A DNA stretch of 40,703 nucleotides from Clostridiales bacterium (GTDB taxonomy: Bacteria > Bacillota > Clostridia > Oscillospirales > Oscillospiraceae), in NCBI GenBank assembly GCA_022781505.1, contig JALETK010000035.1, positions 1 through 40,703 of the forward strand, written 5' to 3'. Made by a program: the position numbers and the translations under genes. Positions 6,239 to 35,032 of the stretch are shown in pieces. Below the pieces are notes generated by a model that had not been told where the DNA came from, made no database searches, and saw only the letters and a list, made by a program, of their open reading frames with translations. Within the stretch, counting starts at the first letter, position 1. Every line of letters starts with the position of its first letter.

Positions 6239-8866
6239 ATGGGGGAACAAACAGGCGCGAAGCATATTTGTGCGGGTCTGCTGGCCCATGTGGACGCGGG
6301 GAAAACCACCCTGTCCGAGGCTCTTTTGTACTGCGCCGGGGCGCTGCGCCGCCTGGGGCGGGTGGATCACGGGGACGCCTTTCTGGACACCCACAGCCTG
6401 GAGCGGGCCCGGGGCATCACCATTTTCTCCAAGCAGGCCCGGCTCACCGTTGGTGACACGGAGCTCACCCTCCTGGACACCCCCGGCCATGTGGACTTCT
6501 CCACGGAGACCGAGCGCACCCTCCGGGTGCTGGACTATGCCATTTTGGTGGTCAGCGCCACCGACGGGGTGCAGGCCCACACCAAGACCCTGTGGGAGCT
6601 GCTCCGCCGGTATCAGGTGCCCACGATTATTTTTGTGAACAAGACCGACCTCCCCGGCCTGGGGGCGGAGGGGGTCATGGAGAATCTGCACCGGAATCTC
6701 TCCTCCGGCTGCGTCAGCTTCTCCCGGGAGCGGGAGGCGGTTTTTGAGGAGGCGGCCCTGTGTGATGAGGCGGCCCTGGAGGAGTATCTGGGGACGGGGC
6801 GTCTCCGGGAGGAGACCCTGAGAAGCCTTATCTCCCGGGAGAAGCTCTTTCCCTGCTTCTTCGGCTCAGCCCTGAAGCTGGAGGGAATTGAGGCGTTTCT
6901 CCGGGGGCTGGACTGCCTTACGGAGGCTCCGTCCTATCCGGAGGCCTTCGCCGCCAGGGTTTACAAAATCGCCCGGGACCCCCAGGGGAACCGGATCACC
7001 TATCTGAAGGTCACAGGAGGGGCCCTCCGGGTTCGGAGCGCCCTGTCCTACTGCCGCCGGAACGGAGAGCCGGTGGAGGAGAAGGTGAAGGAGCTGCGCC
7101 TCTACTCCGGGGCCAGGTTCACCCAGACGGAGGAGGCAGGCCCCGGGGAGATCTGCGGGGTGCTGGGCCTCAGCGGCACCTGGCCGGGCCAGGGCCTGGG
7201 AGCCGAGCCCCAGGGGCCGGCGCCGGTGCTGGAGCCGGTGATGACCTTCCGGCTGGAGCTTCCCCCGGAGACGGACCCTGCCCGGCTGCTCCCCCGGCTC
7301 CTGGAGCTATCGGAGGAGGACCCTCAGCTGCACATCGCCTGGGATACCCGGCTCCGGGAGATTCAGGTGCGGCTCATGGGCCGGGTGCAGACGGAGGTGC
7401 TGTCCGCCCTGATCCGGGAGCGGTTCGGGGTGGAGGTCTCCTTCGGGGCCGGGCGGATTCTCTACCGGGAGACCATCGCCCAGGCGGTGGAGGGGGTGGG
7501 CCACTATGAGCCCCTGCGCCACTACGCGGAGGTGCACCTCCTCCTGGAGCCGCTGCCCCGGGGGGCGGGCCTGGTCTTTGACACCGCCTGCTCCGAGGAC
7601 CAGCTGGACCGGAACTGGCAGCGGCTGATTCTCACCCACCTGGAGGAGAAAACCCACCTGGGAGTTCTCACCGGCTCCCCCATTGGGGATATGAAAATCA
7701 CCCTGGTCTCCGGCCGGGCCCACCTGAAGCACACCGAAGGCGGGGACTTCCGCCAGGCCACCTACCGGGCGGTGCGCCAGGGGCTTATGCAGGCCCGGAG
7801 CATCCTCCTGGAGCCCTATTACCGGGTGCGGCTGACGGTGCCCCTGCCCCAGGCGGGCCGGGCCCAGAGCGACCTGCGCACCATGGGGGCGGAGCCAGAC
7901 CAGGAGGTGCAGGGGGATCTGGCGGTGCTCACGGGCCGGGTGCCCGTGGCCGCCCTGGGGGACTATGCCGCCCAGGTGGCCGCCTACACCCGGGGCCTGG
8001 GGCGGCTCAGCTGCCTGCCCGACGGCTACGAGCCCTGCCGGAACCAGGAGGCGGTGGTGGAGGCCCTGGGCTACGACCCGGAGGGGGATCTGGAGAACAC
8101 GCCCGACTCCGTGTTCTGCGCCCACGGGGCGGGCTTTGCCGTGAAGTGGCGGGATGTGCCCAGGTACATGCACCTGGAGCCTGCCCTGAAGGTGCGCCCT
8201 GCCCCGCCTCCCGCCCCCAGCCGGGGGCCCAGCCAGGAGGAGCTGGAGAAAATCATGGAGCGGGAGTTCGGCCCCATCCGCCGCCCCTTGTACGGCGCCC
8301 CCAGGGCTGCCCCTCCGGAGCGCCCGGCGATGGAGGCGCCCCGGGGGAAGGAGTACCTGATTGTGGACGGGTACAACGTGCTCTTTGCCTGGGACGGCCT
8401 CCAGGACCTGGCAAAGGAGGATCTGGAGGCCGCCCGGGAGCGGCTCATGGACATCCTCAGCAATTACAGCGCCTACACCCACCGGGAGGTGGTGCTGGTT
8501 TTTGACGGCTACAAGGTGCGGGGCAGCCGGGGGGAGCGGTTCCTGCGGAACAACCTCCTGGTGGTCTACACCCGGGAGAACGAGACCGCCGACGCCTACA
8601 TTGAGGCACTGGCCGGTTCCATCGGGAAGAACGACCGGGTGTGGGTGGCCACCTCCGACTCCCTCATTCAGCTCTCTGCCTTCCGCTCCGGCCTCCTGCG
8701 CATCTCCGCCCGGGAGCTTCAGGATCAGATTCAGCGGGCCGGGGCGGACATGGCCGCCTATTTGAAGCATTTGGACAACACTCAGAAAATAAAAGAACAG
8801 GAGGAGCGTAAAAAAGAATGGAGCAGAATTTTGAGCAGGCTGCACTTGCCCTCAGAGCCGTGCTGA
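6239..8866 (+). CDS. Tet(M)-like ribosomal GTPase fused to a C-terminal YacP/Rae1-type NYN ribonuclease domain
   Basis: This is a protein of 875 residues; Tet(M)-class ribosome protection proteins have about 640. Residues 1-660 are EF-G-like: P-loop AHVDAGKTT (about 16-24), switch RGITI, DTPGH, NKTD and GSALK, followed by domains II-V (GVLTGSPIGDMKITL, then SILLEPYYRV and SCLPDGYEPC). A proline-rich linker (about 660-700, PAPPPAPSRGPSQEE) leads to an NYN/PIN-like domain (about 702-850) with LIVDGYNVLF, VLVFDGYKVRGS, ENETADAYIEAL and VWVATSDSLIQ. These are the acidic residues typical of YacP/Rae1. Rae1 in Bacillus subtilis cuts mRNA in the ribosomal A site (established). Recruitment of the nuclease by the GTPase body is my inference. 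The Tet(M) loop YSPVSTPADFR is replaced by LKHTEGGDFR, so tetracycline protection is doubtful. The ATG has AGAAGGAGG 6 nt upstream. The last 49 nt overlap the next gene. Confidence 0.88.
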   Translation: MGEQTGAKHICAGLLAHVDAGKTTLSEALLYCAGALRRLGRVDHGDAFLDTHSLERARGITIFSKQARLTVGDTELTLLDTPGHVDFSTETERTLRVLDYAILVVSATDGVQAHTKTLWELLRRYQVPTIIFVNKTDLPGLGAEGVMENLHRNLSSGCVSFSREREAVFEEAALCDEAALEEYLGTGRLREETLRSLISREKLFPCFFGSALKLEGIEAFLRGLDCLTEAPSYPEAFAARVYKIARDPQGNRITYLKVTGGALRVRSALSYCRRNGEPVEEKVKELRLYSGARFTQTEEAGPGEICGVLGLSGTWPGQGLGAEPQGPAPVLEPVMTFRLELPPETDPARLLPRLLELSEEDPQLHIAWDTRLREIQVRLMGRVQTEVLSALIRERFGVEVSFGAGRILYRETIAQAVEGVGHYEPLRHYAEVHLLLEPLPRGAGLVFDTACSEDQLDRNWQRLILTHLEEKTHLGVLTGSPIGDMKITLVSGRAHLKHTEGGDFRQATYRAVRQGLMQARSILLEPYYRVRLTVPLPQAGRAQSDLRTMGAEPDQEVQGDLAVLTGRVPVAALGDYAAQVAAYTRGLGRLSCLPDGYEPCRNQEAVVEALGYDPEGDLENTPDSVFCAHGAGFAVKWRDVPRYMHLEPALKVRPAPPPAPSRGPSQEELEKIMEREFGPIRRPLYGAPRAAPPERPAMEAPRGKEYLIVDGYNVLFAWDGLQDLAKEDLEAARERLMDILSNYSAYTHREVVLVFDGYKVRGSRGERFLRNNLLVVYTRENETADAYIEALAGSIGKNDRVWVATSDSLIQLSAFRSGLLRISARELQDQIQRAGADMAAYLKHLDNTQKIKEQEERKKEWSRILSRLHLPSEPC

Positions 8867-9847: not shown

Positions 9848-10786
9848 CTACGCCTCTTTCTTTTGTTTTCCACAGGCGATGGGCAGGAGGCACCACAGGA
9901 GGATGGCGCCTGCCGCCAGGAGCCAGGGGGGCGCCTCCCTCCCCCAGGGCATTAAGGCGGCGGCCCCCAGGGCGGACAGCCACACCCCGGGGCGGCCCCA
10001 GCCGGTGTGCAGCGTCTCCGCCATTTTCCCGGCGGCGGTGAGAAGGAGGCTCAGGAGGCAGAACCAGCCCAGGGTCATGGCCGCTGCCACCACGGCCTCA
10101 AACCGCTCCGCCACCCCCAGGATGCTGATGCCCCGGGCCATCTCAAAAAAGGCCCCCTGGGTTCTTCCCGCCACAGCCGGAGACAGGGCTCCCACTGTGA
10201 GAAGGGACACCGCCACCCCCCCAAGACCCAGGCCCAGGGCCCAGGGCCAGGGGGAGCTTCCCCGTTTTCTGGGGAGCAGCCCGCCAACGGCGGGCACCAG
10301 CAGCAGGGCGGCGGGCAGTCTGGGGCCCTCCTCAGCCGGAGCCAGCCACGCCCACTTTACATCGGGCAGGGCGAAGGCGCACAGCAGCAGGAGCATCCCC
10401 GCCAGGAACCAGAACACCACCGCCCCGCACCGGGCCCCCGCCTGGGGGCCTGTCTCGGAGGCGCAGGCGGCCAGCACCAGGAGCACCCCGGGGACGGTCC
10501 AGGGGCGCTCCGCCCCAATCCAGCAGGCGCCGCTCCAGGCCGCCGCCGCCCCGGCACACACAATCAGGAACAGCAGCTGCACCGCTGCCGCAGGCTTCCA
10601 CCGGCACACGCCCCCGGCCCGCTCCGCCAGAAGCCACAGGGCCCCCGCGCCCAGACCTCCCAAAAGGCTCCAGTGCCAGGGGACGCTCCCCAGGAACTGG
10701 AGCATGGGGGCGGACACCGCCGCCGCCGTCCAGGCCCACAGGCTGTGGCCCTCAATTTCCCGGTTGAACAAGCAGATACCTCCCAT
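9848..10786 (-). CDS. gerB: Spore germination permease-like protein, GerAB family
   Basis: This is an integral inner-membrane subunit of a GerA-type nutrient germinant receptor (APC-superfamily fold). It has about 312 residues, shorter than the usual ~360. It is almost entirely hydrophobic, with roughly nine to ten membrane segments (e.g. VQLLFLIVCAGAAAAW, VVFWFLAGMLLLLCAFALP, LGWFCLLSLLLTAAGKMAE) and a short basic tail (GKQKKEA). RGISILGVAERFEAVVAA matches the late GerAB region. The ATG at 10786 overlaps the gerC-like gene by 35 nt but has its Shine-Dalgarno only 3 nt away. TTG at 10771, with GGGAGG 7 nt upstream, is an attractive alternative start. It is the last gene of the gerA operon. 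The family assignment rests on pattern and operon context. Confidence 0.78.
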   Translation of the reverse strand: MGGICLFNREIEGHSLWAWTAAAVSAPMLQFLGSVPWHWSLLGGLGAGALWLLAERAGGVCRWKPAAAVQLLFLIVCAGAAAAWSGACWIGAERPWTVPGVLLVLAACASETGPQAGARCGAVVFWFLAGMLLLLCAFALPDVKWAWLAPAEEGPRLPAALLLVPAVGGLLPRKRGSSPWPWALGLGLGGVAVSLLTVGALSPAVAGRTQGAFFEMARGISILGVAERFEAVVAAAMTLGWFCLLSLLLTAAGKMAETLHTGWGRPGVWLSALGAAALMPWGREAPPWLLAAGAILLWCLLPIACGKQKKEA

Positions 10787-11234
10787 CCTCCTCCAGAAGC
10801 CGGGGCAGGGCCCCTCCCTCCGCCCGCATCAGGCGGAGATTTTTCTCCGGCTCATGGGCCCGGAGGTAGGCCCCCGCCGCCTCCAGATCCATTCCGCGCC
10901 TCCCCAGGCACAGGCTGCAGGCGGGATTGATCTCCTGGCGGGTGAGAATCACCGGCAGCAGCTCCAGGGCGCTGTCGTCCAGCAGCAGGAAGCTGACGGT
11001 TCCCAAAAAGACGCTTCCCGGGGCGGTGGCCTTCAGATTCTCCATGGCCGCCTCCCAGGTGCTCCCGGCTCCCCGGTCCCCGGCGTCGGTCTCCAGCACC
11101 ACGGTGCCCTCCTCCACCGCCACGGCCAGGGTCTCCACGGGCTGGAGCTTTCCCACGTCGTGGTTGGAGAAGGGGAGGCTCCCGGTGAGAATCACCGCCG
11201 CAGCCAGTACCATATAAATAACCCCGTGCTTCAT
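10752..11234 (-). CDS. Short GerAC-like spore germination protein lacking a lipobox
   Basis: This protein has 160 residues; normal GerAC lipoproteins have about 370-400. It starts at the ATG at 11234, 4 nt after the gerA stop, with GAGGTGA upstream. The N-terminal hydrophobic segment (VIYMVLAAAVILTGSLPFS) ends in LTGS where GerAC proteins usually have an LxGC lipobox, so no lipid-modified cysteine is evident. The rest fits the N-terminal GerAC domain: VETLAVAVEEGTVVLETDAG, STWEAAMENLKATAPGSVFLG, then VILTRQEINPACSLCLGRRG. The two later domains of GerAC are missing. The reading frame closes normally and overlaps the next gene, so this looks like a designed short form rather than a broken gene, although a lineage-specific truncation cannot be excluded. 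Confidence 0.65.
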   Translation of the reverse strand: MKHGVIYMVLAAAVILTGSLPFSNHDVGKLQPVETLAVAVEEGTVVLETDAGDRGAGSTWEAAMENLKATAPGSVFLGTVSFLLLDDSALELLPVILTRQEINPACSLCLGRRGMDLEAAGAYLRAHEPEKNLRLMRAEGGALPRLLEEDGRYLLVQPGN

Positions 11235-11238
11235 GGCC

Positions 11239-12696
11239 TCACCTCTGATTTCTCCCGTCCTGGGGGGACAGGCTGGGGTCCCGGAACTTGCTCCGGAACA
11301 GCCTCCGGCGCAAAATGCCCGGGTGGGCGGAGCCGGAGAAGGGGGCGAGATAGGCCACGTCCATGCAGGTCAGCCGGGACAGATGAATGAGCAGGGCCAG
11401 AAATCCCGCCGTGAGGCCGAAGAGCCCCGCCAGGCTGGCGGTCACGGTCAGGGCAAATCTCCACATCCGCACCGCGTCGGCAAAATCCCTGCCGGGAAGG
11501 GCAAAGCCGCAGATTCCCGCCACGGACACGGCGATGAGGGCCGCCGGGGAGACCAGCTTGGCCTCCACCGCCGCGGTGCCCACCACCAGGCCGCCGATGA
11601 TGGACACCGCCTGGCCGATGGACTGGGGCAGGTGGATGCCTGCCTCCTGCAAAATTTCAAAGGCCAGGAGCAGCCCCAGCACCTCCACCACCGTGGGAAA
11701 GGGGACGGACTCCTTGCTCTCAATCATGGCCTTGAGAAGGGGCAAGGGGATCATCTCCTGGTGGAACGCGGCCATGGCCACATAAAACCCGGGGAGCAGC
11801 AGGCTCAGGAGCATGGCCCCGTACCGGAGCACCCGCACCGCCGAGGCGGAGACATAGTCCATGCCCAGATCCTCGGGACTGGTCATGAGGCAGCCCAGAT
11901 CCGCCGGGGCCAGGTAGCCCAGGGGCAGCCCGTCCACCAGGAGGCCCACCCGCCCGGCCAGAAGGCCCTGGCAGAACTTGTCCGCCCGCTCCGTGTACTG
12001 AAGCAGAGGGAAGGCCGTGGGCCGGGAGCCGGTGACGTACTCCTCCACCGCCGCCGGGGACAAAAAGCCGTCGATGTCGATGCTGTCCAGGCGGCCCTTC
12101 ATTTTCTCCACCAGCGCCGGGTCGGTGATTCCCTCCACATAGGCCACGGTGACGTTGGTAAGGCTCCGCCGCCCCACCAAGGTCTCGTACAGCCGCAGGT
12201 CGGGAGACCGCATGTGCCGCCGGATGAGGCTGGTGTTGGTGCGGACGGTCTCCGTAAAGGCGTCCTTGGGGCCCTTGACGGTATTTTCCACCTCCGGGGC
12301 GGACAGGCCCCGCTTTTCCCCGGTTTTGACCTCAAAGGCAATGGCCCCCGCCCCGGGAAACAGAACCACGCAGAAGCCGTTTACCAGCTTCTTTGCCACG
12401 GTGTCCAGATCCTTGCAGGGGTCGGCCACGGAGTTGTACACCGCCCCCCCAAGGGCCCGGTCATAGAGCTCCTCCATGGAGCCGCCCCGGAGGTGCTCGG
12501 TGATGGGCTTGAAGATATACTCCGAGGCATCTCCCCCGGACACCAGGCCGTCAATCATGTAGGCATAGAGGACGGCCTCTCCGCAGGTTAAGACCCGGTG
12601 AATAAAATCCCCCGCATCCCGGAAAATATGACAGATGTTCCCGTCGGTCAGCTCCCCGGGGTACATAGGCTGGGGCCGGGGGGTGGGCTTTTCCAT
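11239..12696 (-). CDS. gerA: Spore germination protein, GerAA family
   Basis: This is the A subunit of a GerA-type germinant receptor in the spore inner membrane. It has 485 residues, normal length. A large hydrophilic N-terminal region (about 1-260) contains typical family segments: GEAVLYAYMIDGLV, TAFPLLQYTERADKFCQGLLAGRVGLLVDGLP and SPEDLGMDYVSAS. Four to six membrane segments follow (about 265-440) including SIGQAVSIIGGLVVGTAAVEAKLVSPAALIAV, the most conserved GerAA stretch. A polar C-terminal tail follows. The ATG at 12696 has GGGAGGTGATG upstream. A sigma-G-like promoter lies directly before it, which fits forespore expression. It heads the operon gerA - gerC-like - gerB. Confidence 0.92.
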   Translation of the reverse strand: MEKPTPRPQPMYPGELTDGNICHIFRDAGDFIHRVLTCGEAVLYAYMIDGLVSGGDASEYIFKPITEHLRGGSMEELYDRALGGAVYNSVADPCKDLDTVAKKLVNGFCVVLFPGAGAIAFEVKTGEKRGLSAPEVENTVKGPKDAFTETVRTNTSLIRRHMRSPDLRLYETLVGRRSLTNVTVAYVEGITDPALVEKMKGRLDSIDIDGFLSPAAVEEYVTGSRPTAFPLLQYTERADKFCQGLLAGRVGLLVDGLPLGYLAPADLGCLMTSPEDLGMDYVSASAVRVLRYGAMLLSLLLPGFYVAMAAFHQEMIPLPLLKAMIESKESVPFPTVVEVLGLLLAFEILQEAGIHLPQSIGQAVSIIGGLVVGTAAVEAKLVSPAALIAVSVAGICGFALPGRDFADAVRMWRFALTVTASLAGLFGLTAGFLALLIHLSRLTCMDVAYLAPFSGSAHPGILRRRLFRSKFRDPSLSPQDGRNQR

Positions 12697-12715: not shown

Positions 12716-12745
12716 TAGTATGGCCCAAGGGAGGAGAACTATTCC
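12716..12745 (-). promoter_or_regulatory. Sigma-G/sigma-F-type promoter of the gerA operon
   Basis: On the minus strand, GGAATA (12745-12740) and CATACTA (12722-12716) are separated by 17 bp. Forespore sigma-G promoters have GNATA-like -35 and CATNNTA -10 elements, so the match is strong. The -10 ends only 19 nt before the ATG, so the leader would be about 12 nt and begin at the Shine-Dalgarno. Confidence 0.65.
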
Positions 12746-25143: not shown

Positions 25144-28100
25144 TTATCCGGCGGAAATGCAGATGGCGTTGTTCTCCGTATCCAGGCGGAAGGTGACGCC
25201 CTCGGCGGTGGGGATCAGCTTGGCAAGATCCGCCTCGGTGAGGGTGTAGTCCTCCGTGCCCTTTGCCACCACGAAGCCGTCGGTGGGGTACTGGCTGTAC
25301 ACCGTCACGGTGTGGGTCAGGGGGCCGGTGATGACCGCCCAGGTGTTGTTCAGGCTCTTGCTCTGGTCATAGAGGAGCAGGGTGATGTCCTGATTCAGCT
25401 TGTTCAGGTTGACGGTGGCGGTGTACTTCGTGCCGGGACTTCTCAGGGTGATGCCGTCGCCCCTGGCTCCGGTGAGGGGAGAGGCCTCGTTGCCGGTGAA
25501 GGTGCCGCCGCTGAAGTTCACCTCCGTCTGGAGCTTCAGGTAGGCGATGCCGCCGTAGCCATAGGAGGCGCTGGTGGAGGCGCTGCGGTTGTTTGTGTAG
25601 GTGCCGCCGTTGATGTCCAGCACCGTGTTGGCCACGTTGGCGGTGTAGGAGCCCAGGAACACCGCGCCGGGGCCCAGCACCTCGTTGCCGGAGAAGGTGC
25701 AGTCGTTGAACACCAGGTGGTTGCTGCTGTTGTAGGTGACATACAGCAGCCGGGCCTCGTTGCCGGTGATGGTGCCTCCGTTCACGGTCAGGTTCACCGT
25801 GCCCCCCGCCGCGCCGGTGATGAAGAAGATGGAGGGGCCGGAGGTCTCGCTCATGGTGGTGACATAGGACTCAATGCCGCTGGCCACCGTGAGATCATCC
25901 ACATTCACCGTGTTCACCGTGTCCTTCGCGCCGTAGACGTAGACCACGCTCTGGGAGGAGCCCCGCATGTTCCGGGCCACGGTGCCCTTCTGCAGGTTCA
26001 GGGTGCCGCCCTTGTCCACCCGGAACATGGCGCTGTGGGTGCTGGAGTAGGGGAAGGCCTGACGGTTGCCGTCCAGCACCACGTCGTGGACGTTGGCCGT
26101 GCCGTAGACGTAGAAGAAGTAGCTGCTGTTGGTGGTGTACCGCAGGATTGCGCCGTTGGGAATGTCCTCCATGGTGATCTCCTGGGTGGTGTCCGCCGGG
26201 ATGGTGACGTTCTGCATGATGAAAATCACGTTCTCCCCGGTGCCCGAGAGGTTGGCCTTCAGAACGGCCTTGGCCCTGTCGAAGGTGGCCACGGGGGTGT
26301 CCGGGGTGAGGCCGTCGTTTTCATCGCTGCCCTTGGTGCCGCTGAGGTACACCGCGGAGCCGATGTTCCGGCTGTAGGCCACCTTGTAGGCTCCGTCCAG
26401 GGGGTCCAGGAGGGTGGTGTAATAGGTGGAATCCAGCCCGCTTTGGAGGCGGCAGGCCTGGGTGTCCGCCTCGGTGAGGAGGTAGGTGCCATAGCCCCGG
26501 AGGAGGACGGTGTTAATGTCCACGCCGTCATAGTAGACGTCGATGCCGCCGCCTTTGACGTAGCTCAGGGGCTTGGCGGCGTAGATGCCCGCCGTGCCGG
26601 AGGCGCCGTCGGTGTAGGCCACATAGATGCCGTCCATGTCCACATCGTCCTTGGCGCCGTTCAGAACCACCTTGCCGGCCTTCATCACGTTCACGGCGCA
26701 GTTGCCGAAGCCCTCGCCGCTGGTGTTGTCCCGGATGGTGCAGCCGTTCAGGCTGAGGGTGGCGATGTCGGACTTGCTCTTGTCGCCCACGCCGATGCCT
26801 GCGGAGGCGCCGCCGGAGGTGTTGCCGGTGACGGTGCCGCCGTTAAACTGGCACAGGATGTTGCCGCTGACGTTGATGGTGGCGCCCACGCCTGCGGTGT
26901 TGTTCGTGAAGGTGGCGCCGTTGATCACCAGGCTGGAGGGCTCCTCACTGGTGCCGTAGATCCGCAGAGCGGAGCCGTTGGCCCCCATGAGGCTGGCGGT
27001 GGTGCCCACCTGCTGGTTGCCGGAGAACTCCACGGCGTTGAGAATCACCGTGCTGCCGCTGGAGACGGACATGCCGCCGGTGTAGTTGCCGGTGTTGTTC
27101 AGAATCTTCACGCCGTCGTTCATCACCACGGTGTTGCAGCCCCAGCCGTAGATGGCGCCGGTGGTGCTCTTCTGGTTGCCGCAGTTCTGAATCACCACGC
27201 CCTCATTCAGAATCAGGCTGCCGCCGGTGTCGGAGGTGCTGTCCGCGTCCTCCAGGGAGATCATGTGGGTGAGGATGGAGGCCGTCTGCAGGGAGGGGAA
27301 CATCTCCGTGCCGCCGTCCAGAATCAGGTGATCCATGGTGAGGGTGACCCCGGGCTCCACGATGATACCGGCGGTGGTGAAGCCGCTGGCGGCCCGGACC
27401 ACCTTGCCGCCGGGCAGATCCGCCATGGACCAGGTGGTGTCCTCGGTGAGGGTCATGGTGCCGCAGAGGAGAATCACCGGGTTCTTGGCGTCCTTCAGCA
27501 GCTCCTTGGCCCGCTCAAAGGTGCGCACGGCCTGCTCCACGGAGGAGCCGTCGTTGGCATCGTCGCCCAGAACGCCATAGTTGGTGTTGCCGGACTCGTT
27601 GCCGCCCAGGTAGATGTAATCGGAACGGTCATCCACCAGCCAGGAGGCGTAAATCCGGGTGTCCTCGTGGATGGCGCTGTAGAAATTGTAGGCGGTGGTG
27701 AGCTCCGGGTCGGCGTACCACCCGGCGAAGAGGAAGCCCTCCTTCTCCGGGGAGGCGGGGCGCTCCACCCGGGCGCCGTAGCGCACCTCCTGGGTGAACA
27801 GCACCTCCTCGCCGTCCATGAAGCTGACGGTGTAGACCCTTGCGCCCCACTTGGCGTACAGGGTGACGCTCTCATACACGGGCTGGGAGAAGTCGAATTG
27901 GTTCTCGAAGGTGGGCTCTGTGTACCAGCCCTCCAGGCCGTAGCCATCCCGGGTGGCGGTGGCCGGAGTCACGGTTCCGCCCCAGGGCACCTGCACGGAG
28001 GCAGGCTCAATGGTGGCCGCCTGGGCGGAGACGAATTTCACGGTGAGCACCATGTCCTTGGTGGTGAAGCTCACGGTCACATCCCGGTCGATGTTCTTGA

Positions 28101-29352
28101 GAACGAAGGCGGAGCCGTTTTTGCTCAGGGTACCTGCGGTGACCTGCACATCATCCAGCTCAAAGCCCTGGGACTTGTCCCCGAAGAGGCTGAAGGTCAG
28201 CCAGGTCTGGCCGGGCTCCAGGGTCACGGCGTCCACCTTCTCCCCGTCCACCTTGGCATAGCCCTGGTCGCCCACAAAGGTGACGGTGTAGGCGGGGGCG
28301 GGCTCCGTGGGGGTGGGAGGCTCCGTGGGGTCGGGCTCCGTGGGGGTGGTGGGCTCGGGAGGCGCAGGCTCTTTGGGGAGGCAGCCGTGGAAGACCACCA
28401 TGATCTTGGCCACCTCCGCCCGGGTAATAAGGCCCTTGGGCCGGAAGGAGCCGTCGGGGTAGCCCTCCACGATACCGGCCCCAGCGCACAGCTTGACGGC
28501 GTCCTTCGCCCATCTGCTGATGGAGGCCTCATCGGTGAAGGTCTTGGAACCGGCGGTGTTCTCCAGCTCCGCGCCGCTGTAGGCGGCGAACCGGGCCAGC
28601 ATGGTCACAGCCTCTTCTCTTGTGATGCTGCCTCCGGGGATAAACAGGCAGTTTCCGTAGCCGTAGACAATCTTGTTCTCCGCCGCCCAGGTCACGGCGT
28701 TGGTGTACCACTTCCCGGCGGGCACATCGGTGAAGGGGTTCTCCCCGGCGGGGGCGGGGGAACCGGCCATGCGGTAGAGCATGGTGGCCATCTGGGCCCG
28801 GGTCACGTTCTCACCCGGGGCGAAGCGGTCCTGGCCCATGCCCACCATGAGGCCCAGGTCGTAGGCCTCGTAGACGTAGGAGAAGTACCACTTGCTCTCG
28901 TCGGTCACGTCCACAAACCGATAGGGGGTCTTCAGCTCGATGGTCACAGGAATGGGATCGATTCCCAGCTCCGGAAGCTCGATGCTTCCCTCGTAGGCGC
29001 CGGGGGCGCCCGTGAAGGTCAGCTCCAGAATGGCCGTCTCGACGGTGTAGTCCTCATAGGAGGCCCAGGCGAAGCTGACGGTGGTGCCGGTGGTGCTGAG
29101 GTTGCTGACGCCGGTGCTGCCCACCAGGGACTTGGCGCTTTTGAGGGTCAGCTCCTCCGGGAAGGTATACACCAGGCGTCCGCTGCCGGAGTCCGCGCCT
29201 CCGGGGATGAACAGCTGGAGGGTGACGCTGTCCTGGGTCTGGGCCGTCAACTTTTGGGTGACCGGCGCAGGCGCCTCCAGGGCCCATACGTTTGCGCTCA
29301 GGCTGAAAATCATGACGATTGCCAGCAGAGACGCAAAAATCCGTTTCTTCAT
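25144..29352 (-). CDS. Secreted S-layer-homology protein with cohesin-like N-terminal domain, InlB-type repeats and two beta-helix modules
   Basis: This protein has 1402 residues from the ATG at 29352 (MKKRIFASLLA); the ORF-track start lies inside the upstream gene. The signal peptide ends near SANVWA. Residues ~30-140 form a beta domain with cohesin-like rhythm (VTLQLFIPGGADSG..., VSFAWASYEDYTVETAILEL). Three SLH domains follow (~143-197, 204-255, 270-320; e.g. FTDVPAGKWYTNAVTWAAEN, GSFRPKGLITRAEVAKIM), which bind wall polysaccharide. Next are a Pro/Thr linker (~325-355) and Listeria-Bacteroides repeats (~460-575, GYGLEGWYTEP, GFLFAGWYADP). Two parallel beta-helix modules complete it, each opening with a G-D-x-x-D-G segment (GVLGDDANDGSS; SGTKGSDENDGLTPDTP). 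There is no LPXTG motif. It begins 20 nt after the subtilase stop, so it shares that operon. It is likely an adhesin or anchoring scaffold; no catalytic residues could be assigned. Confidence 0.85.
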   Translation of the reverse strand: MKKRIFASLLAIVMIFSLSANVWALEAPAPVTQKLTAQTQDSVTLQLFIPGGADSGSGRLVYTFPEELTLKSAKSLVGSTGVSNLSTTGTTVSFAWASYEDYTVETAILELTFTGAPGAYEGSIELPELGIDPIPVTIELKTPYRFVDVTDESKWYFSYVYEAYDLGLMVGMGQDRFAPGENVTRAQMATMLYRMAGSPAPAGENPFTDVPAGKWYTNAVTWAAENKIVYGYGNCLFIPGGSITREEAVTMLARFAAYSGAELENTAGSKTFTDEASISRWAKDAVKLCAGAGIVEGYPDGSFRPKGLITRAEVAKIMVVFHGCLPKEPAPPEPTTPTEPDPTEPPTPTEPAPAYTVTFVGDQGYAKVDGEKVDAVTLEPGQTWLTFSLFGDKSQGFELDDVQVTAGTLSKNGSAFVLKNIDRDVTVSFTTKDMVLTVKFVSAQAATIEPASVQVPWGGTVTPATATRDGYGLEGWYTEPTFENQFDFSQPVYESVTLYAKWGARVYTVSFMDGEEVLFTQEVRYGARVERPASPEKEGFLFAGWYADPELTTAYNFYSAIHEDTRIYASWLVDDRSDYIYLGGNESGNTNYGVLGDDANDGSSVEQAVRTFERAKELLKDAKNPVILLCGTMTLTEDTTWSMADLPGGKVVRAASGFTTAGIIVEPGVTLTMDHLILDGGTEMFPSLQTASILTHMISLEDADSTSDTGGSLILNEGVVIQNCGNQKSTTGAIYGWGCNTVVMNDGVKILNNTGNYTGGMSVSSGSTVILNAVEFSGNQQVGTTASLMGANGSALRIYGTSEEPSSLVINGATFTNNTAGVGATINVSGNILCQFNGGTVTGNTSGGASAGIGVGDKSKSDIATLSLNGCTIRDNTSGEGFGNCAVNVMKAGKVVLNGAKDDVDMDGIYVAYTDGASGTAGIYAAKPLSYVKGGGIDVYYDGVDINTVLLRGYGTYLLTEADTQACRLQSGLDSTYYTTLLDPLDGAYKVAYSRNIGSAVYLSGTKGSDENDGLTPDTPVATFDRAKAVLKANLSGTGENVIFIMQNVTIPADTTQEITMEDIPNGAILRYTTNSSYFFYVYGTANVHDVVLDGNRQAFPYSSTHSAMFRVDKGGTLNLQKGTVARNMRGSSQSVVYVYGAKDTVNTVNVDDLTVASGIESYVTTMSETSGPSIFFITGAAGGTVNLTVNGGTITGNEARLLYVTYNSSNHLVFNDCTFSGNEVLGPGAVFLGSYTANVANTVLDINGGTYTNNRSASTSASYGYGGIAYLKLQTEVNFSGGTFTGNEASPLTGARGDGITLRSPGTKYTATVNLNKLNQDITLLLYDQSKSLNNTWAVITGPLTHTVTVYSQYPTDGFVVAKGTEDYTLTEADLAKLIPTAEGVTFRLDTENNAICISAG

Positions 29353-29371
29353 AGTATGATGCACCGTCCTT

Positions 29372-32300
29372 TCATCGGTTCCCGGCAATCCCTGCCGGGA
29401 CATCCTCTGTATCCAGGGTGGCGGGAGCGGTCAGCAGGGAGGCGTCCATGGCGTTTACCAGGAGGGCGCCGTCCGCCGCGTCGGAAGCGTCCACCTCCAG
29501 ACCGGCCACGGGCCAGACCTCGTCGCCGAAGCTGCCCAGGTTGGCGGTGGCGCCGCTGTTCAGATCCAGGGCAATGAGCTGGGTCTTGTCCCCGGTCCAC
29601 AGGGAGCAATAGACATACTTGCCGTTGGTGGCAATGGAGGAGAAGTACCACTTGCCCCCGGTGGTCATGCCGATGCTGCCCAGCCGCTGGGGGGTGGTGC
29701 GCAGGAAGTCCCCCTCGGACTGGGCAACGCCCATGAGCCAGAGCTGGCCGTTGGAGTCCAGAAGGATGCAGGAGTCAATGTACCCGTACTGATTGTTCTC
29801 CTGACTGGAGACGTAGCAGATGCCCACGGCGCTGGCGCCGCTTCCCAGGACGGCGGACAGATCCCAGGCTCCGTCATAGCCGCCGGTGGTGGTGTTCACC
29901 ACGGCCACATAGTTGCCATAGGTGGCCAGGAGCAGGCCGTTTGCCACATTGGGGCACCAGGCGAGATCGGTGTAGCCAATCTCCGAGGTGCCAATTTTGG
30001 TTAGATCGTAGGTATCGGAGACGGTGTACAGAGAGGAGATCAGACTACCGTCGGAGTTCTCCTCATAGGTGGCGGCATAGCCTCCCGCCAGGGCCATAAG
30101 CTGCTGGCTGCAGGCCTTCTCCGTGAGCTTGGTGTAGGCGGGGATGGTGTCGGTGTTGAAGGTGCTGAACCAGACCTCGCTGTTCTCGTCCCAGACAAGG
30201 CCCGTGAGCGCCTGGTTCAGGGCCGTGACGGTGACGGTGCAGGAGGCGGTGACCTCCGGATTCAGAACCGAAGCGGCGGTGACGGTGCAGGTGCCCACGC
30301 CTGTGGCGGTGATGACGCCCTCCTCCACGGTGGCCACTGTGGGATCGGAGGTGGTCCAGGTGCAGGCCCGGTTCACCACGGTCCAGGGCTTGGCGGAGAC
30401 CTCCAGGGTGTGGGTGCCGCCCTTGAGCATGGAAACCGCGTCCTCGCTCAGGGAGATCTCCTGCACATCCGTGGAGGGGCCGAAGGTGGTGGTGGCCTTC
30501 TTGGGGATGAACATGCCGCACATCTCGTTCATGCCGAAGCTGCCCAGGACGGTGGCCTTGCCGCTGGCCAGGTCATAGGTCACCAAGCGGCACTCGTAGG
30601 AGGTTCCGGCGGCATTGGTGCCATAGTTCAGGTGATAGAGGGTGCCGGTGTTGTGGTCATAGGCCATGGACTGGATGTAGGCCGCGCTGAGGCCCGAGGG
30701 ATTGGGGGCGGCCTTCACAGTGAAGCCCTCCTCGCCCAGGGTGAAGGTGTACAGGCGGGAGCTGTAGGTGCTGTTGGTGGCGCCGTAGAAGGTTCCGTCG
30801 GTGGCGCAGGCCAGGGTTTGCAGGGTGCCCGAGGGCAGGGGAATCACACCCACCAGGGTGGTGTCGCCCATGAGGGGATCGATGGTATAGAGGTAGTTGC
30901 CGGAGCAAAGGGCGTAGAGCTTTCCGTCGGCGTAGTTGTAGGCCATATCCAGGGTCACGCTGGGCAGGCTCAGGGTCTCGATGTAAATCTGATCCTCCAG
31001 GTCCTCCAGGGGCGCGACGCAGAAGCGGCGGTTGGAGTCAGCGGTGAACACATAGCCGTCGATGTACTCCGCGGCGTAGACGCTGCCCTCGGCCACAGCT
31101 TTGGCGCTGCCCGGATCGTCGGGCTTGAAGGCCAGCCAGGCATCGTCAAACAGGTCGTTGGCATAGATATAGGCAGAGGCGTCGTCTCCGTCCCCATCGC
31201 CGCCGCCGATGTTCACCAGGTAGCCTGTGGTGTTGCCGGCGTAGTCCACGGCCAGCACCACGATCTCGGAGGCGGTGACGCCGGAGATGTCCACGTCCAC
31301 ATCCACGGCCTGGCCCGGCTGGGTGCTGCCGGCAGCCTGGCGGGCCAGAATCTCCGTCTGGCGAGCGTTGGTCACCAGAACGGCGGCCACATACCGGTCA
31401 TCCTGGGCGGTGATGCTCAGCCGGGCGCTGCCAGTGATCAGGTTCCGGGAGATGGAGGCGTCCAGAATCTCCGGGGCGGTGTCGTCCACCGTGAGGGTGG
31501 TCTCCCACACCGCGCCGTGGGACAGGGTTCCCTTCACCGCCTGGGTCTCCCGATCCCAGTTGTACTCGGGAATGGCATAGACGGAGACCTTCACCTTTGT
31601 GCCCTCGGGGAGCTTGTTGCCGCCGGCATCGGTCACCTTCCAGCCCAGGGAGGTGACGATGTTGGTATTGGCCCAGACGCCCGCATTGGAATTGTAGTAA
31701 GCGCCGTACTGGGCACCCTTGTTCACGGTCTTGTACACCTCGCCGGTCTCGGCGTTGGTGATCTCCGCATACATGCTGCCGCCGGCGTTCCGGATGAGGG
31801 TGGCGTAGGCGGCGGTGATGGTGCTGTCCGTGCTGACGGCCGTCCGATCCGCCAGGAAGGTCTCCTCCTGGGCGTAGGGGTTGCCGGTGAGATAATAGGC
31901 GTTGTCCATCACCAGGGCGTTGGTGTAGGAGGAGCCCACATAGGGGTAGGCATCGGGGTCGCCGCTGTCCTCCAGGGTGATGAACTTGTCAAACATGGAG
32001 GGCTCGGTCCAGCTGCCGTAATAGGCCAGCATGGGAAGGGACAGGGCCGCGTTCTGACCCTCCGGGTCCTCGGCGTACACAAAGCCCTCTACATAGCAGC
32101 CGTTTTCGTAGTTCTCCGCGAAGTAGGCCCGGTCGGCCTCGGAGAGAGTCACCTTGACGTGAACCCCGATGGCCTTTCCGGCCTCCACCACATAGGCGGT
32201 GGCGCGCACGTCCACCAGATCCTTCTCGCCCTTCAGGCTCCGGAGGTAGATCTTGGCGTCCCGGCTGGTGATCTCCCCGTCGCCGTCAAAGTCGTATTTC

Positions 32301-34816
32301 ACCGCGTCCCCGTCGGACAGAGGCGCCACGGCCCGGTTGGCCACCGCCAGAAGAACCTCCGCGTCCTTCTCGTCGGGCTGCCCGTCGCCGTTCAGGTCAT
32401 ACACATACCGCTCCGCCGCGTCGGTGGTGAAGACCACCTCCGGGGCAAGGGCGTAGGAGGAATCGGACATAAAGTCCTCGCCGCCGATGGCTTCCACGTC
32501 CATGGTGTTGACGGAGGCCCGGAACCGGTAGCTGAGCGTCTCCTGCGAGAGGTTGTTCACCGTGAAGTCGAATTCATAGACACCGGTGCGCTCCGGGTCG
32601 TCTCCCAGGCAGGCTTTGACCTTGCCGTCGGTGACATTCTTGTCCTCCGTCAGAAGATAGGCGGGGGTTGTCACCGCCTGGTAGACGTTGGCGAGACCCG
32701 AGCCCTGCTTTCTGGGGGAGTATTCCACGCCGTCCTCCTCCAGGAGTGGCACGGAGGTGGACATGAGAAGCGCCTGGGACAGAGCCCGAACCGTCAGGCC
32801 CTCCTGCTCCGCAAGGCCATTCTCCTTCACATACTGGGCAGCCACCGCCGCCATGCCCGTGACGCTGGGGGAGGACATGGAGGTGCCGGACATGGAGCCG
32901 TAGCTGCCGTCCGTCAGGGTGGACCAGATGTTGCCGCCGGGGGCGGTGATCTCCGGCTTCAGATCCAGATTCCCGGGCACGCCCCAGGAGGAGAAGCTGC
33001 TGGGGGCAGAGCCGCCGGGCACATTCTGGACGGTCTGCACCTTGTCGGCGATGACCATGGTTCCGCCCCAGACTCCGTCCTCTCCCTGCTGGGAGGCGGC
33101 CAGAATCATGTCTCCGTAGACCTTTTCAATGGAGATGGCGGGATTTTTGTACTTATAGCCGGTCATATTCATATTGATGGAACCGGCTGCGTTGTTGTAG
33201 ACCACGGCGGCCACGGCTCCGGCCTCCACGGCCCGGTTACCCTTTTCAAAGAAGGACACACCGCCGCCCCGGGAGATGAGGACGATTTTCCCGGTGAGAT
33301 CCAGATTTTGGAAGTCCTCCTCCGCGCCGTAGATGTGCTCCCCGGTCACGGGATCTCCCAGGAACACATATTCATAGGCCGTGCCGGAGGCATCGCCGGA
33401 GGTGTCCAGGGAGGCGAAGGACTGCATACCGTAGCTGCTGTAGGTGTCGGCATAGGCCGTGACCACGCCGCTGAACACTGGCATCACGCCGGTTAGCCCA
33501 GCGTTGTCCACAGAGGCCACGGTGAAGGCGTTGCCGAAGGCGCCGGGGGAGCCCACGGTGTTGATCACCGTGTCCCCGGTGAGCTGCAGCTTCACGCCGG
33601 TGTTGTTGAACTCCGCGTAGCTGTACTTGTTGCCCGCGGAGATGGTAACCACGGTGTCCGAGTCCACCAGGCTTTTAAACAGGGCGTCATAGTCTCCGTA
33701 GGTGTGGCCGGGCATGGAGGAGCCCAGGGACAGGTTCACCGTGTCGCAGCCTAAGAGGATGGCGTCCTCAATGGCGGCCATGTAATCGGAGTCATAGGCG
33801 CCGCCGGTTTTGCCGAAGACCTTCATGGTGAGAATCTGGGCGTCTGGGGCCACGCCCACCACGCCGTTTTCCTGCTGGGCGGCCACCAGATCCCCATCGG
33901 CGTCCTTGGACCAGACATAGGTGTTGGCCGTGGCGATGCCGGAGACGTGGGTGCCGTGATCCCCCTGGGTGTCATTGTCGTGGGTGACATCCAGATCCTC
34001 GTCCACATAGTTGAAGGCGAAGGGGACCTTGGCGGAGCGGTAGAGCTCCTGGGCGGTGAGGCCGCTGTACAGCTCCGCCGCGTGGAGCTTGGGGAGCACC
34101 TGGCTGATCTCCTGGTCGGTCAGGAGGTTGTAATCGTCCACCTCCTTGCCGAAGCGGGCGGCGGAGAGCTCCAGACCGTAGAGGAAGCAACCCTCGTCAA
34201 AGCTGGGGTGATCCAGATCCAGCCCCGTGTCAATGATGGCAATCCGGGAGCCTGCGCCGGTGTAGCCGTCGGCCCAGGCGCTGTAGGAGCCCACCATGGT
34301 TCCGGCGGTGGAGGTGTCCGGCTCCTCCGTGTCAGGCAGATACTGGTTCTCTATGTACACGGCCCTGACGCTGTCCAGAGCCTCGACGGTGTCAATCTGG
34401 CTGGCCAGCAGGGTGGTGGCCACACCGTTGACGCCAATGGAGAACCGGTACCGGAGCTCCAGCTCCTGGCCCAGGGCCTTGCTCACCTTGGCCATAGCCG
34501 CGTCCTGGCGTTTTTCCAGGGTGGCGCGGTAGGCCATGGCTCCCTGGTTGGAGGCCAGGCCCATGGTGGAGTAGCCCCGCTCCACCAGGGCCGCATCCTG
34601 GAAGATGATGATCACCCGCAGGCTCTCCTCCTCTCCGGGCGTATCCGGCTCCTGGGGGGCGGGGGCGTCCGTCAGACCCTCCGCCGTCACGGGAACCTCC
34701 TGCAGCCCCAGCTCCTGGGTCTGCGAGGCCGCCAGCACTGCGGGAACGCAGGTCAGCAGCAGGCAAACCGCCAGAATCCAGGCCACAAGATGGCGCATTC
34801 TTGGGTTTCTTCTCAT
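29372..34816 (-). CDS. Very large secreted subtilisin-family protease with PA, Fn3-like, dockerin and Ig-like (BID_2) domains
   Basis: This protein has 1814 residues from the ATG at 34816 (AAAGGA upstream). The signal peptide MRRNPRMRHLVAWILAVCLLLTC continues to VLAA, then a propeptide (~60-170). The S8 catalytic domain has Asp in IAIIDTGLDLDHP (~194), His in GDHGTHVSGIA (~287) and Ser in SGTSMSSPSVTGMAA (~644). A PA insert (~475-570) sits between His and Ser, as in lactocepin/C5a-peptidase proteases. An Fn3-like region follows. Within it, at ~805-860, lie two dockerin calcium loops (DLNGDGQPDEKDAEVLL and DFDGDGEITSRDAKIYL). Further on are a metal-dependent-looking beta region, a BID_2 domain (~1458-1532, ending VITATGVGTCTVTA) and propeller-like repeats. 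No LPXTG or SLH is present, so surface attachment would need a partner. The SLH protein follows in the operon. Confidence 0.9.
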   Translation of the reverse strand: MRRNPRMRHLVAWILAVCLLLTCVPAVLAASQTQELGLQEVPVTAEGLTDAPAPQEPDTPGEEESLRVIIIFQDAALVERGYSTMGLASNQGAMAYRATLEKRQDAAMAKVSKALGQELELRYRFSIGVNGVATTLLASQIDTVEALDSVRAVYIENQYLPDTEEPDTSTAGTMVGSYSAWADGYTGAGSRIAIIDTGLDLDHPSFDEGCFLYGLELSAARFGKEVDDYNLLTDQEISQVLPKLHAAELYSGLTAQELYRSAKVPFAFNYVDEDLDVTHDNDTQGDHGTHVSGIATANTYVWSKDADGDLVAAQQENGVVGVAPDAQILTMKVFGKTGGAYDSDYMAAIEDAILLGCDTVNLSLGSSMPGHTYGDYDALFKSLVDSDTVVTISAGNKYSYAEFNNTGVKLQLTGDTVINTVGSPGAFGNAFTVASVDNAGLTGVMPVFSGVVTAYADTYSSYGMQSFASLDTSGDASGTAYEYVFLGDPVTGEHIYGAEEDFQNLDLTGKIVLISRGGGVSFFEKGNRAVEAGAVAAVVYNNAAGSINMNMTGYKYKNPAISIEKVYGDMILAASQQGEDGVWGGTMVIADKVQTVQNVPGGSAPSSFSSWGVPGNLDLKPEITAPGGNIWSTLTDGSYGSMSGTSMSSPSVTGMAAVAAQYVKENGLAEQEGLTVRALSQALLMSTSVPLLEEDGVEYSPRKQGSGLANVYQAVTTPAYLLTEDKNVTDGKVKACLGDDPERTGVYEFDFTVNNLSQETLSYRFRASVNTMDVEAIGGEDFMSDSSYALAPEVVFTTDAAERYVYDLNGDGQPDEKDAEVLLAVANRAVAPLSDGDAVKYDFDGDGEITSRDAKIYLRSLKGEKDLVDVRATAYVVEAGKAIGVHVKVTLSEADRAYFAENYENGCYVEGFVYAEDPEGQNAALSLPMLAYYGSWTEPSMFDKFITLEDSGDPDAYPYVGSSYTNALVMDNAYYLTGNPYAQEETFLADRTAVSTDSTITAAYATLIRNAGGSMYAEITNAETGEVYKTVNKGAQYGAYYNSNAGVWANTNIVTSLGWKVTDAGGNKLPEGTKVKVSVYAIPEYNWDRETQAVKGTLSHGAVWETTLTVDDTAPEILDASISRNLITGSARLSITAQDDRYVAAVLVTNARQTEILARQAAGSTQPGQAVDVDVDISGVTASEIVVLAVDYAGNTTGYLVNIGGGDGDGDDASAYIYANDLFDDAWLAFKPDDPGSAKAVAEGSVYAAEYIDGYVFTADSNRRFCVAPLEDLEDQIYIETLSLPSVTLDMAYNYADGKLYALCSGNYLYTIDPLMGDTTLVGVIPLPSGTLQTLACATDGTFYGATNSTYSSRLYTFTLGEEGFTVKAAPNPSGLSAAYIQSMAYDHNTGTLYHLNYGTNAAGTSYECRLVTYDLASGKATVLGSFGMNEMCGMFIPKKATTTFGPSTDVQEISLSEDAVSMLKGGTHTLEVSAKPWTVVNRACTWTTSDPTVATVEEGVITATGVGTCTVTAASVLNPEVTASCTVTVTALNQALTGLVWDENSEVWFSTFNTDTIPAYTKLTEKACSQQLMALAGGYAATYEENSDGSLISSLYTVSDTYDLTKIGTSEIGYTDLAWCPNVANGLLLATYGNYVAVVNTTTGGYDGAWDLSAVLGSGASAVGICYVSSQENNQYGYIDSCILLDSNGQLWLMGVAQSEGDFLRTTPQRLGSIGMTTGGKWYFSSIATNGKYVYCSLWTGDKTQLIALDLNSGATANLGSFGDEVWPVAGLEVDASDAADGALLVNAMDASLLTAPATLDTEDVPAGIAGNR

Positions 34817-34867
34817 GTTCGTCATCCTTTCCGTTTTTTTACCTGCCCATGGAGCAGGCTTGCTTTT

Positions 34868-34895
34868 ATTATACAATGTGTCTCCGAAAAAGCAA
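34868..34895 (-). promoter_or_regulatory. SigA-type promoter of the surface-protein operon
   Basis: On the minus strand, TTGCTT (34895-34890) and a perfect TATAAT (34873-34868) are 16 bp apart, about 50 nt before the ATG. Confidence 0.65.
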
Positions 34896-35032
34896 TATAG
34901 TTTTTTGCCGTCATATTCAAACAGAAATCTACATAGATGAACATTTTTCTGCATTTTCCGTTAAAAGCCGGAAGAATCGGACAAGGTTTGACAAAAGCCC
35001 CGGAGCCCGTGGCGCCCCCCGGCTTTGCTCCC

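What the first reader, a model, noticed from the sequence alone, without database searches (positions are those of the whole stretch)
10752..11234. Miniature GerAC lacking the lipid-attachment cysteine
Seen: only the N-terminal third of a GerAC protein, with LTGS where a lipobox LTGC is expected, in an intact and tightly packed gerA-gerC-gerB operon; the GerAB is short too. Known: GerAC lipidation is needed for full function in Bacillus. Inference: a reduced germinant receptor, possibly typical for gut spore-formers responding to other signals.
Basis: partly seen in the sequence, partly recalled or inferred. Interest (0 to 1): 0.55.

Follow-up and report, generated by a model that had tools for sequence, protein, structure and literature searches.

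The report
One-domain, lipid-free germination receptor C subunit
The only germination receptor of this gut spore-former has a C subunit cut down to its first domain and lacking the usual lipid anchor, and this is an inherited trait of a whole bacterial clade, so it may show which part of the subunit spores really need.

Summary
A tight minus-strand operon, gerA (485 aa), mini-gerC (160 aa), gerB (306-312 aa), is the only GerA-type receptor in a genome about 96% complete. It is not a recent mutation or an assembly error. 38 genomes in 12 of 92 sampled genera of the family carry the same mini-C, and none of 53 sequences has a lipobox cysteine. On the GerA tree these operons form one 100/100-supported clade among operons with full-length GerC, nearly all lipoproteins. 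Mini-C corresponds to GerAC domain 1. The evidence is colinear profile matches (score 39.9 against at most 15.0 in decoys) and bridging proteins with weak to strong matches to Spore_GerAC_N. The second conserved domain is found nowhere in the genome. A 20-residue uncharged segment (residues 4-23) probably serves as a signal anchor in place of the lipid. GerB keeps the APC-transporter fold. Purifying selection and a sigma-G-type promoter argue that the operon is functional. LTGS itself is not conserved. GerC shrank or lost its cysteine several times independently in the order, and some close relatives have gerA with no adjacent C or B. Anchoring, complex assembly and germination function are inferred. 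Verdict: a new variant of a known receptor.

The parts
11239..12696 (-). gerA: GerA-family channel subunit, 485 aa, full length
   Evidence: PF03323 E 2.2e-134, profile positions 5-458 of 466; the only GerA in the genome
10752..11234 (-). mini-gerC: one-domain C subunit, 160 aa
   Evidence: profile match to bona fide GerAC; conserved in the clade
11166..11225 (-). uncharged hydrophobic segment (residues 4-23, GVIYMVLAAAVILTGSLPFS), probable uncleaved signal anchor
   Evidence: 20-residue run, mean Kyte-Doolittle 1.99 over 19 residues; helix 3-16 in the model, with low confidence there
11178..11189 (-). LTGS, residues 16-19, about where a lipobox Cys would be
   Evidence: not conserved in the clade
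10755..11156 (-). GerAC domain-1-like alpha/beta domain, residues 27-160
   Evidence: AlphaFold2 model, block pLDDT 85-96 from residue 31 on; colinear profile alignment
9848..10786 (-). gerB: short GerAB-like APC-fold subunit, 312 aa from the ATG at 10786 (306-307 aa if the start is the TTG at 10771)
   Evidence: AlphaFold2 pTM 0.88; Foldseek E 2.3e-6 to AdiC; TIGR00912 weak
12716..12744 (-). sigma-G-type promoter GAATA-N17-CATACTA, 20 bp before the gerA start
   Evidence: only match in the window, 0.05 expected; sites with at most 1 mismatch in 15 of 40 clade relatives against 2.4 in shuffles

Best explanation
The operon encodes a working but reduced GerA-type nutrient germinant receptor, made in the forespore. 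GerA forms the channel and GerB (APC fold) senses the nutrient. The C subunit has been cut to GerAC domain 1, the N-terminal part. It is probably held on the outer face of the spore inner membrane by an uncleaved N-terminal hydrophobic helix instead of a lipid. It would do what domain 1 does in full receptors: sit on GerA and GerB and help them assemble and signal. The reduction arose once in the ancestor of a clade of Oscillospiraceae from a full-length, probably lipoprotein, GerC, with similar losses elsewhere in the order. Shown here: clade-wide conservation, absence of Cys and of the second conserved domain, domain-1 homology by profile, GerB fold, purifying selection, single receptor. Inferred: helix anchoring, location, complex formation, germination function.
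For: Homologous operons: 45 loci, 39 distinct; 38 genomes in 12 genera match the mini-C profile at E <= 1e-20. One GerA clade at 100/100 (18 rows; 35 rows). Mini-C against GerAC profiles: 95.9%, E 6e-9; without the signal region, score 39.9 against at most 15.0 in 60 decoys, colinear. The mini-C profile aligns with the N-terminus of full-length GerACs, best 4.6e-9. Bridging one-domain proteins L203, L205, L209, L237 match PF25198 at 1e-5 to 1e-17, L237 (25.3 bits) just under the 27-bit cut-off. dN/dS 0.06-0.42. No PF05504 or PF25198 elsewhere in the genome. SpoVAD and SpoIVA are present. Sigma-G-type promoter. GerB has the APC fold. Where gerA has moved away, mini-C stays next to gerB in 7 of 7 genomes. 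Precedent: GerKC tolerates Cys loss, attributed to a long hydrophobic region (PMC11841064).
Against: Mini-C alone hits no family. The structure search of its model did not return GerBC 3N54 or any significant match, and the mixed profile reached 3N54 only at E 0.55. Some members have short hydrophobic segments (10-15 residues), so cleavage by signal peptidase I is not excluded. In 4 of 5 close relatives with gerA next to an rRNA operon no gerB was found genome-wide, so this receptor may be on its way out. No expression or germination data exist.
Confidence: 0.68

Rival explanations
1. Mini-C is homologous to GerAC domain 1, but its N-terminus is an ordinary signal peptide cleaved by signal peptidase I, so the domain is held only by binding to GerA and GerB.
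For: Segments are short in some members (uncharged run 10-23, median 17); there is no lipobox.
Against: 38 of 53 members reach transmembrane-like hydropathy of at least 1.6 over 19 residues; by eye no conserved small-x-small cleavage motif stands out. No signal-peptide predictor was available.
Confidence: 0.17
2. Mini-C is an unrelated small membrane protein that took the place of GerC in the operon.
For: No family hit; no significant PDB fold match.
Against: Profile match far above decoys; bridging proteins match both profiles; PF25198 is the family most often hit by clade members, weakly (8 of 32, best 0.0039); colinear from residue 1.
Confidence: 0.07
3. The receptor is decaying and not used; mini-C is a step in the loss of nutrient germination, replaced by another germination route.
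For: C and B are missing next to gerA in some near relatives, and GerB is missing genome-wide in 4 of 5 of them; no GerD and no SleB/CwlJ hydrolase found in this genome.
Against: Purifying selection on mini-C and GerB; intact in 12 genera; sigma-G-type promoter.
Confidence: 0.08
4. Recent mutation, frameshift or sequencing error in one genome.
For: None found.
Against: Same length and no Cys in 53 sequences from many independent assemblies; 0 of 36 same-genus genomes have a full-length form.
Confidence: 0.01

Closest known systems
GerAC / Ger(x)C lipoprotein (Spore_GerAC_N PF25198 + Spore_GerAC PF05504; B. subtilis GerBC structure 3N54)
   Same: Place in a gerA-type operon, N-terminal membrane-targeting segment, domain-1 profile match, colinear from residue 1
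   Different: No lipobox Cys, no PF05504 domain, less than half the length, loop in domain 1 shortened
B. subtilis GerKC
   Same: Reported to tolerate loss of its Cys or of GerF, attributed to a long hydrophobic segment (PMC11841064)
   Different: Keeps the Cys and, as far as I know, full length
Clostridial GerXC without recognised lipobox (C. botulinum / C. sporogenes, PMC4161481)
   Same: C subunit without the consensus lipobox in a receptor operon
   Different: The paper reports no truncation; not a one-domain protein
One-domain GerC lipoproteins found here in other lineages (L109-L111, L181, L237)
   Same: Only GerAC domain 1, in a ger operon
   Different: Keep the lipobox Cys
Heteromeric amino acid transporters (SLC3 type II membrane protein + SLC7 APC transporter)
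   Same: If helix-anchored: a type II protein with an outer domain on an APC-fold partner; Artzi et al. (PMC8617281) draw this comparison for GerAC
   Different: Analogy only; no sequence relationship tested
Orphan gerA genes (C. perfringens; C. botulinum Group II GerXAO)
   Same: GerA without adjacent C or B, as in some relatives of this operon
   Different: The window keeps all three genes

Membership tests
GerA-type germinant receptor operon | GerA subunit, PF03323 | tested here: met
   E 2.2e-134 over nearly the whole profile
GerA-type germinant receptor operon | GerB subunit, Spore_permease PF03845 or TIGR00912 | tested here: inconclusive
   No PF03845 hit; TIGR00912 E 0.0068, far under cut-off; APC fold by Foldseek E 2.3e-6; clade GerB profile matches GerBs of full-length operons
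GerA-type germinant receptor operon | Three genes in one tight operon with a sigma-G promoter | tested here: met
   4-bp gap and overlap; sigma-G consensus by pattern only
GerA-type germinant receptor operon | Needed for nutrient-triggered germination | not testable with these tools
   Needs spores and mutants
GerAC / Ger(x)C | N-terminal domain PF25198 | tested here: inconclusive
   Window protein: no hit; 8 of 32 clade members hit weakly, best 0.0039; profile-profile 95.9%, 39.9 against 15.0 decoys
GerAC / Ger(x)C | C-terminal domain PF05504 | tested here: not met
   Absent from the protein and from the genome
GerAC / Ger(x)C | Lipobox with lipid-attachment Cys | tested here: not met
   0 of 53 clade members
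GerAC / Ger(x)C | Located on the outer face of the spore inner membrane | not testable with these tools
   Hydrophobic N-terminus is compatible

The most novel reading that the evidence does not exclude
In this clade the C subunit has turned from a peripheral lipoprotein into a small type II membrane protein, and the receptor is being taken apart stepwise: domain and lipid lost first, then gerC-gerB split from gerA, then C and B apparently lost in relatives within the window's own subclade. GerA alone, or with a minimal partner, would then sense and gate germination.
Probability: 0.2. Interest if true: 0.72.

Novelty: new variant of a known kind. Interest (0 to 1): 0.5.

Why it matters
What GerAC does is unknown ('a lipoprotein with unknown function', PMC8617281). 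A clade that kept only domain 1 and dropped the lipid and the rest, apparently with no second receptor, points to domain 1 as the essential part. That can be tested by truncation and anchor swaps in B. subtilis. It also warns that current Pfam and NCBIfam models miss the C and B subunits of such gut spore-formers, so surveys based on them may score their receptors as incomplete.

Tried and rejected
Recent mutation or error: rejected by relatives. Missing half encoded elsewhere in the genome: no PF05504 hit. Second complete receptor: only one GerA. Structure search to prove the GerAC fold: no significant match and GerBC absent from the list, so the fold claim rests on profiles. PDB search with mini-C alone: only chance hits. 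Strict sigma-G pattern across the clade: 2 of 48, so not strictly conserved; relaxed to at most 1 mismatch it is enriched. An initial reading of 7 rumen genomes as 'gerA only' was rejected when C and B were found together elsewhere in those genomes. Rfam: nothing in the window. No complex prediction was possible, since only single chains can be folded. No paper in the held library was found that describes a one-domain GerC; the library is partial.

Full report
Observation. The minus strand carries gerA 12696..11239 (485 aa), a 160-aa ORF 11234..10752 four bases downstream, and gerB 10786..9848 overlapping it. GerA is an ordinary PF03323 protein (E 2.2e-134). The 160-aa protein and GerB have no Pfam hit; GerB has a weak TIGR00912 hit, E 0.0068. 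The genome (2.47 Mb, 96.28% complete) has exactly one GerA.

Relatives. 48 related gerA loci were fetched and 60 relatives searched. 45 loci (39 distinct) have a 150-167 aa ORF directly after gerA, none with a lipobox Cys (the 211-aa forms are read-through of one sequence). In the 36 same-genus genomes neither PF05504 nor PF25198 is found. Over 251 genomes of the family the mini-C profile matches 53; 38 of these, from 12 of 92 sampled genera, at E <= 1e-20 (genera counted by hand). Weaker matches fall in ORFs that are mostly full-length GerACs.

What mini-C is. Profile-profile comparison with 13 GerACs of the same order gives 95.9% and E 6.3e-9. Without the signal region the score is 39.9; reversed and 60 column-shuffled decoys reach at most 15.0, and the alignment is colinear over nearly the whole mini-C. 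The mini-C profile aligns from the N-terminus of full-length GerACs, best 4.6e-9. One-domain proteins in other genera bridge the gap: L237 (187 aa, with Cys) matches both profiles (7e-7, 7e-11) and PF25198 at 1.5e-5, just under that family's cut-off; L203 and L209 match at 6e-17 and 3e-15, L205 at 1.4e-6. PF25198 is the Pfam family most often hit by clade members, though weakly (8 of 32, best 0.0039). A profile with the bridges has GerBC 3N54 as its only PDB hit, but at E 0.55. The AlphaFold2 model is confident (pLDDT 87.5), but Foldseek found no significant PDB match and did not list 3N54. The homology claim therefore rests on sequence profiles.

Anchor. Residues 4-23 are uncharged (19-residue hydropathy 1.99). 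Over the clade the run is 10-23 residues (median 17), and 38 of 53 pass 1.6. LTGS is in only 2 of 53, so the site drifted after Cys was lost. A review states that C-subunit lipidation by GerF matters for receptors, but that GerK tolerates loss of GerF or of its Cys, presumably because of its long hydrophobic segment (PMC11841064). I infer that the helix stays uncleaved and replaces the lipid; this was not tested.

GerB. The model (pTM 0.88) matches APC transporters, best AdiC, E 2.3e-6. This agrees with GerAB as an APC-type nutrient sensor (PMC8617281). The short GerB thus keeps the fold.

Evolution. 100 operons of the family and 20 regions of other families were read. On GerA trees the mini-C operons are one clade: 35 rows at 100*, 18 rows at 100/100 in the careful tree, beside clades whose GerC is mostly full length with Cys. 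GerC lost length or Cys independently elsewhere: genus g38 (no Cys, about 200 to about 310 aa), L205 (193 aa, no Cys), L112 (188 aa, no Cys), and domain 1 with Cys in L181/L183, L234, L237, L109-L111. Start codons were chosen by rule, so single lengths may be off.

Function. dN/dS for mini-C is 0.06-0.42, similar to GerB. SpoVAD and SpoIVA are present in this genome and in all 22 near-complete relatives searched. A perfect sigma-G consensus lies just before gerA, the only one in the window, 0.05 expected. In relatives at most 1 mismatch occurs in 15 of 40 against 2.4 shuffled. In 7 rumen genomes nested in the clade, gerA has moved away and mini-C with gerB sits elsewhere, so C and B stay paired.

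Further reduction. L053, L055, L058, L059 and L062, within the window's own subclade (99*), have gerA followed by non-coding DNA; in L055 and L059 the start of a 16S rRNA gene is reached, and in the others the same leader-like sequence is seen. No mini-C follows, and no GerB is found genome-wide in 4 of 5. These are drafts of unknown completeness, and a genome-wide search for mini-C was not run.

Comparison and verdict. Receptors are modelled as GerA pentamers or hexamers with GerB around them and a ring of C subunits on the outer face (PMC13170314; PMC11841064). The operon works like such a receptor. By strict membership the C subunit fails two defining features of GerAC (lipobox, PF05504) and is inconclusive for the third, so it is best called a reduced, divergent relative of GerAC. 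Missing lipoboxes were noted before in clostridia (PMC4161481); a one-domain GerC fixed across a clade was not found in the held literature.

Noticed in passing
window 6239-8866 (+): 875-aa fusion of an EF-G/TetM-like GTPase with a C-terminal YacP-like NYN (Rae1-type) RNase domain (PF05991 E 2.5e-43).
   Followed up: partly
L053, L055, L058, L059, L062, downstream of gerA: gerA sits directly before rRNA-leader-like DNA (16S start reached in L055 and L059), with no C or B after it; no GerB genome-wide in 4 of 5. Many family contigs also end a few kb from gerA, perhaps for the same reason.
   Followed up: partly
L259-L265 versus L067, L069, L071, L073, L074, L075, L077: Operon split in seven rumen genomes: gerA alone, mini-gerC plus gerB together elsewhere.
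   Followed up: yes
L116, L118, L119, L198, L213, L217, L218, L220-L222, L224, L227, L228, L231, L232, L236, L248: A deep separate GerA clade (17 rows, 100*) with no C or B next to it; perhaps SpoVAF-like, not settled.
   Followed up: partly
L237 (gerA, 187-aa lipobox GerC, then a 226-aa ORF): One-domain lipoprotein GerC, no GerB after it, followed by a protein with a peptidoglycan-binding-like start.
   Followed up: no
genome G000: No GerD and no SleB/CwlJ-type Hydrolase_2 found, though SpoVAD and SpoIVA are present; the cortex lytic enzyme is unidentified.
   Followed up: no
window 25144-29403 (-) and 29372-34954 (-): Two large neighbouring surface-type proteins: SLH plus List_Bact_rpt repeats (1419 aa), and a subtilase with PA and Ig-like domains (1860 aa).
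   Followed up: no
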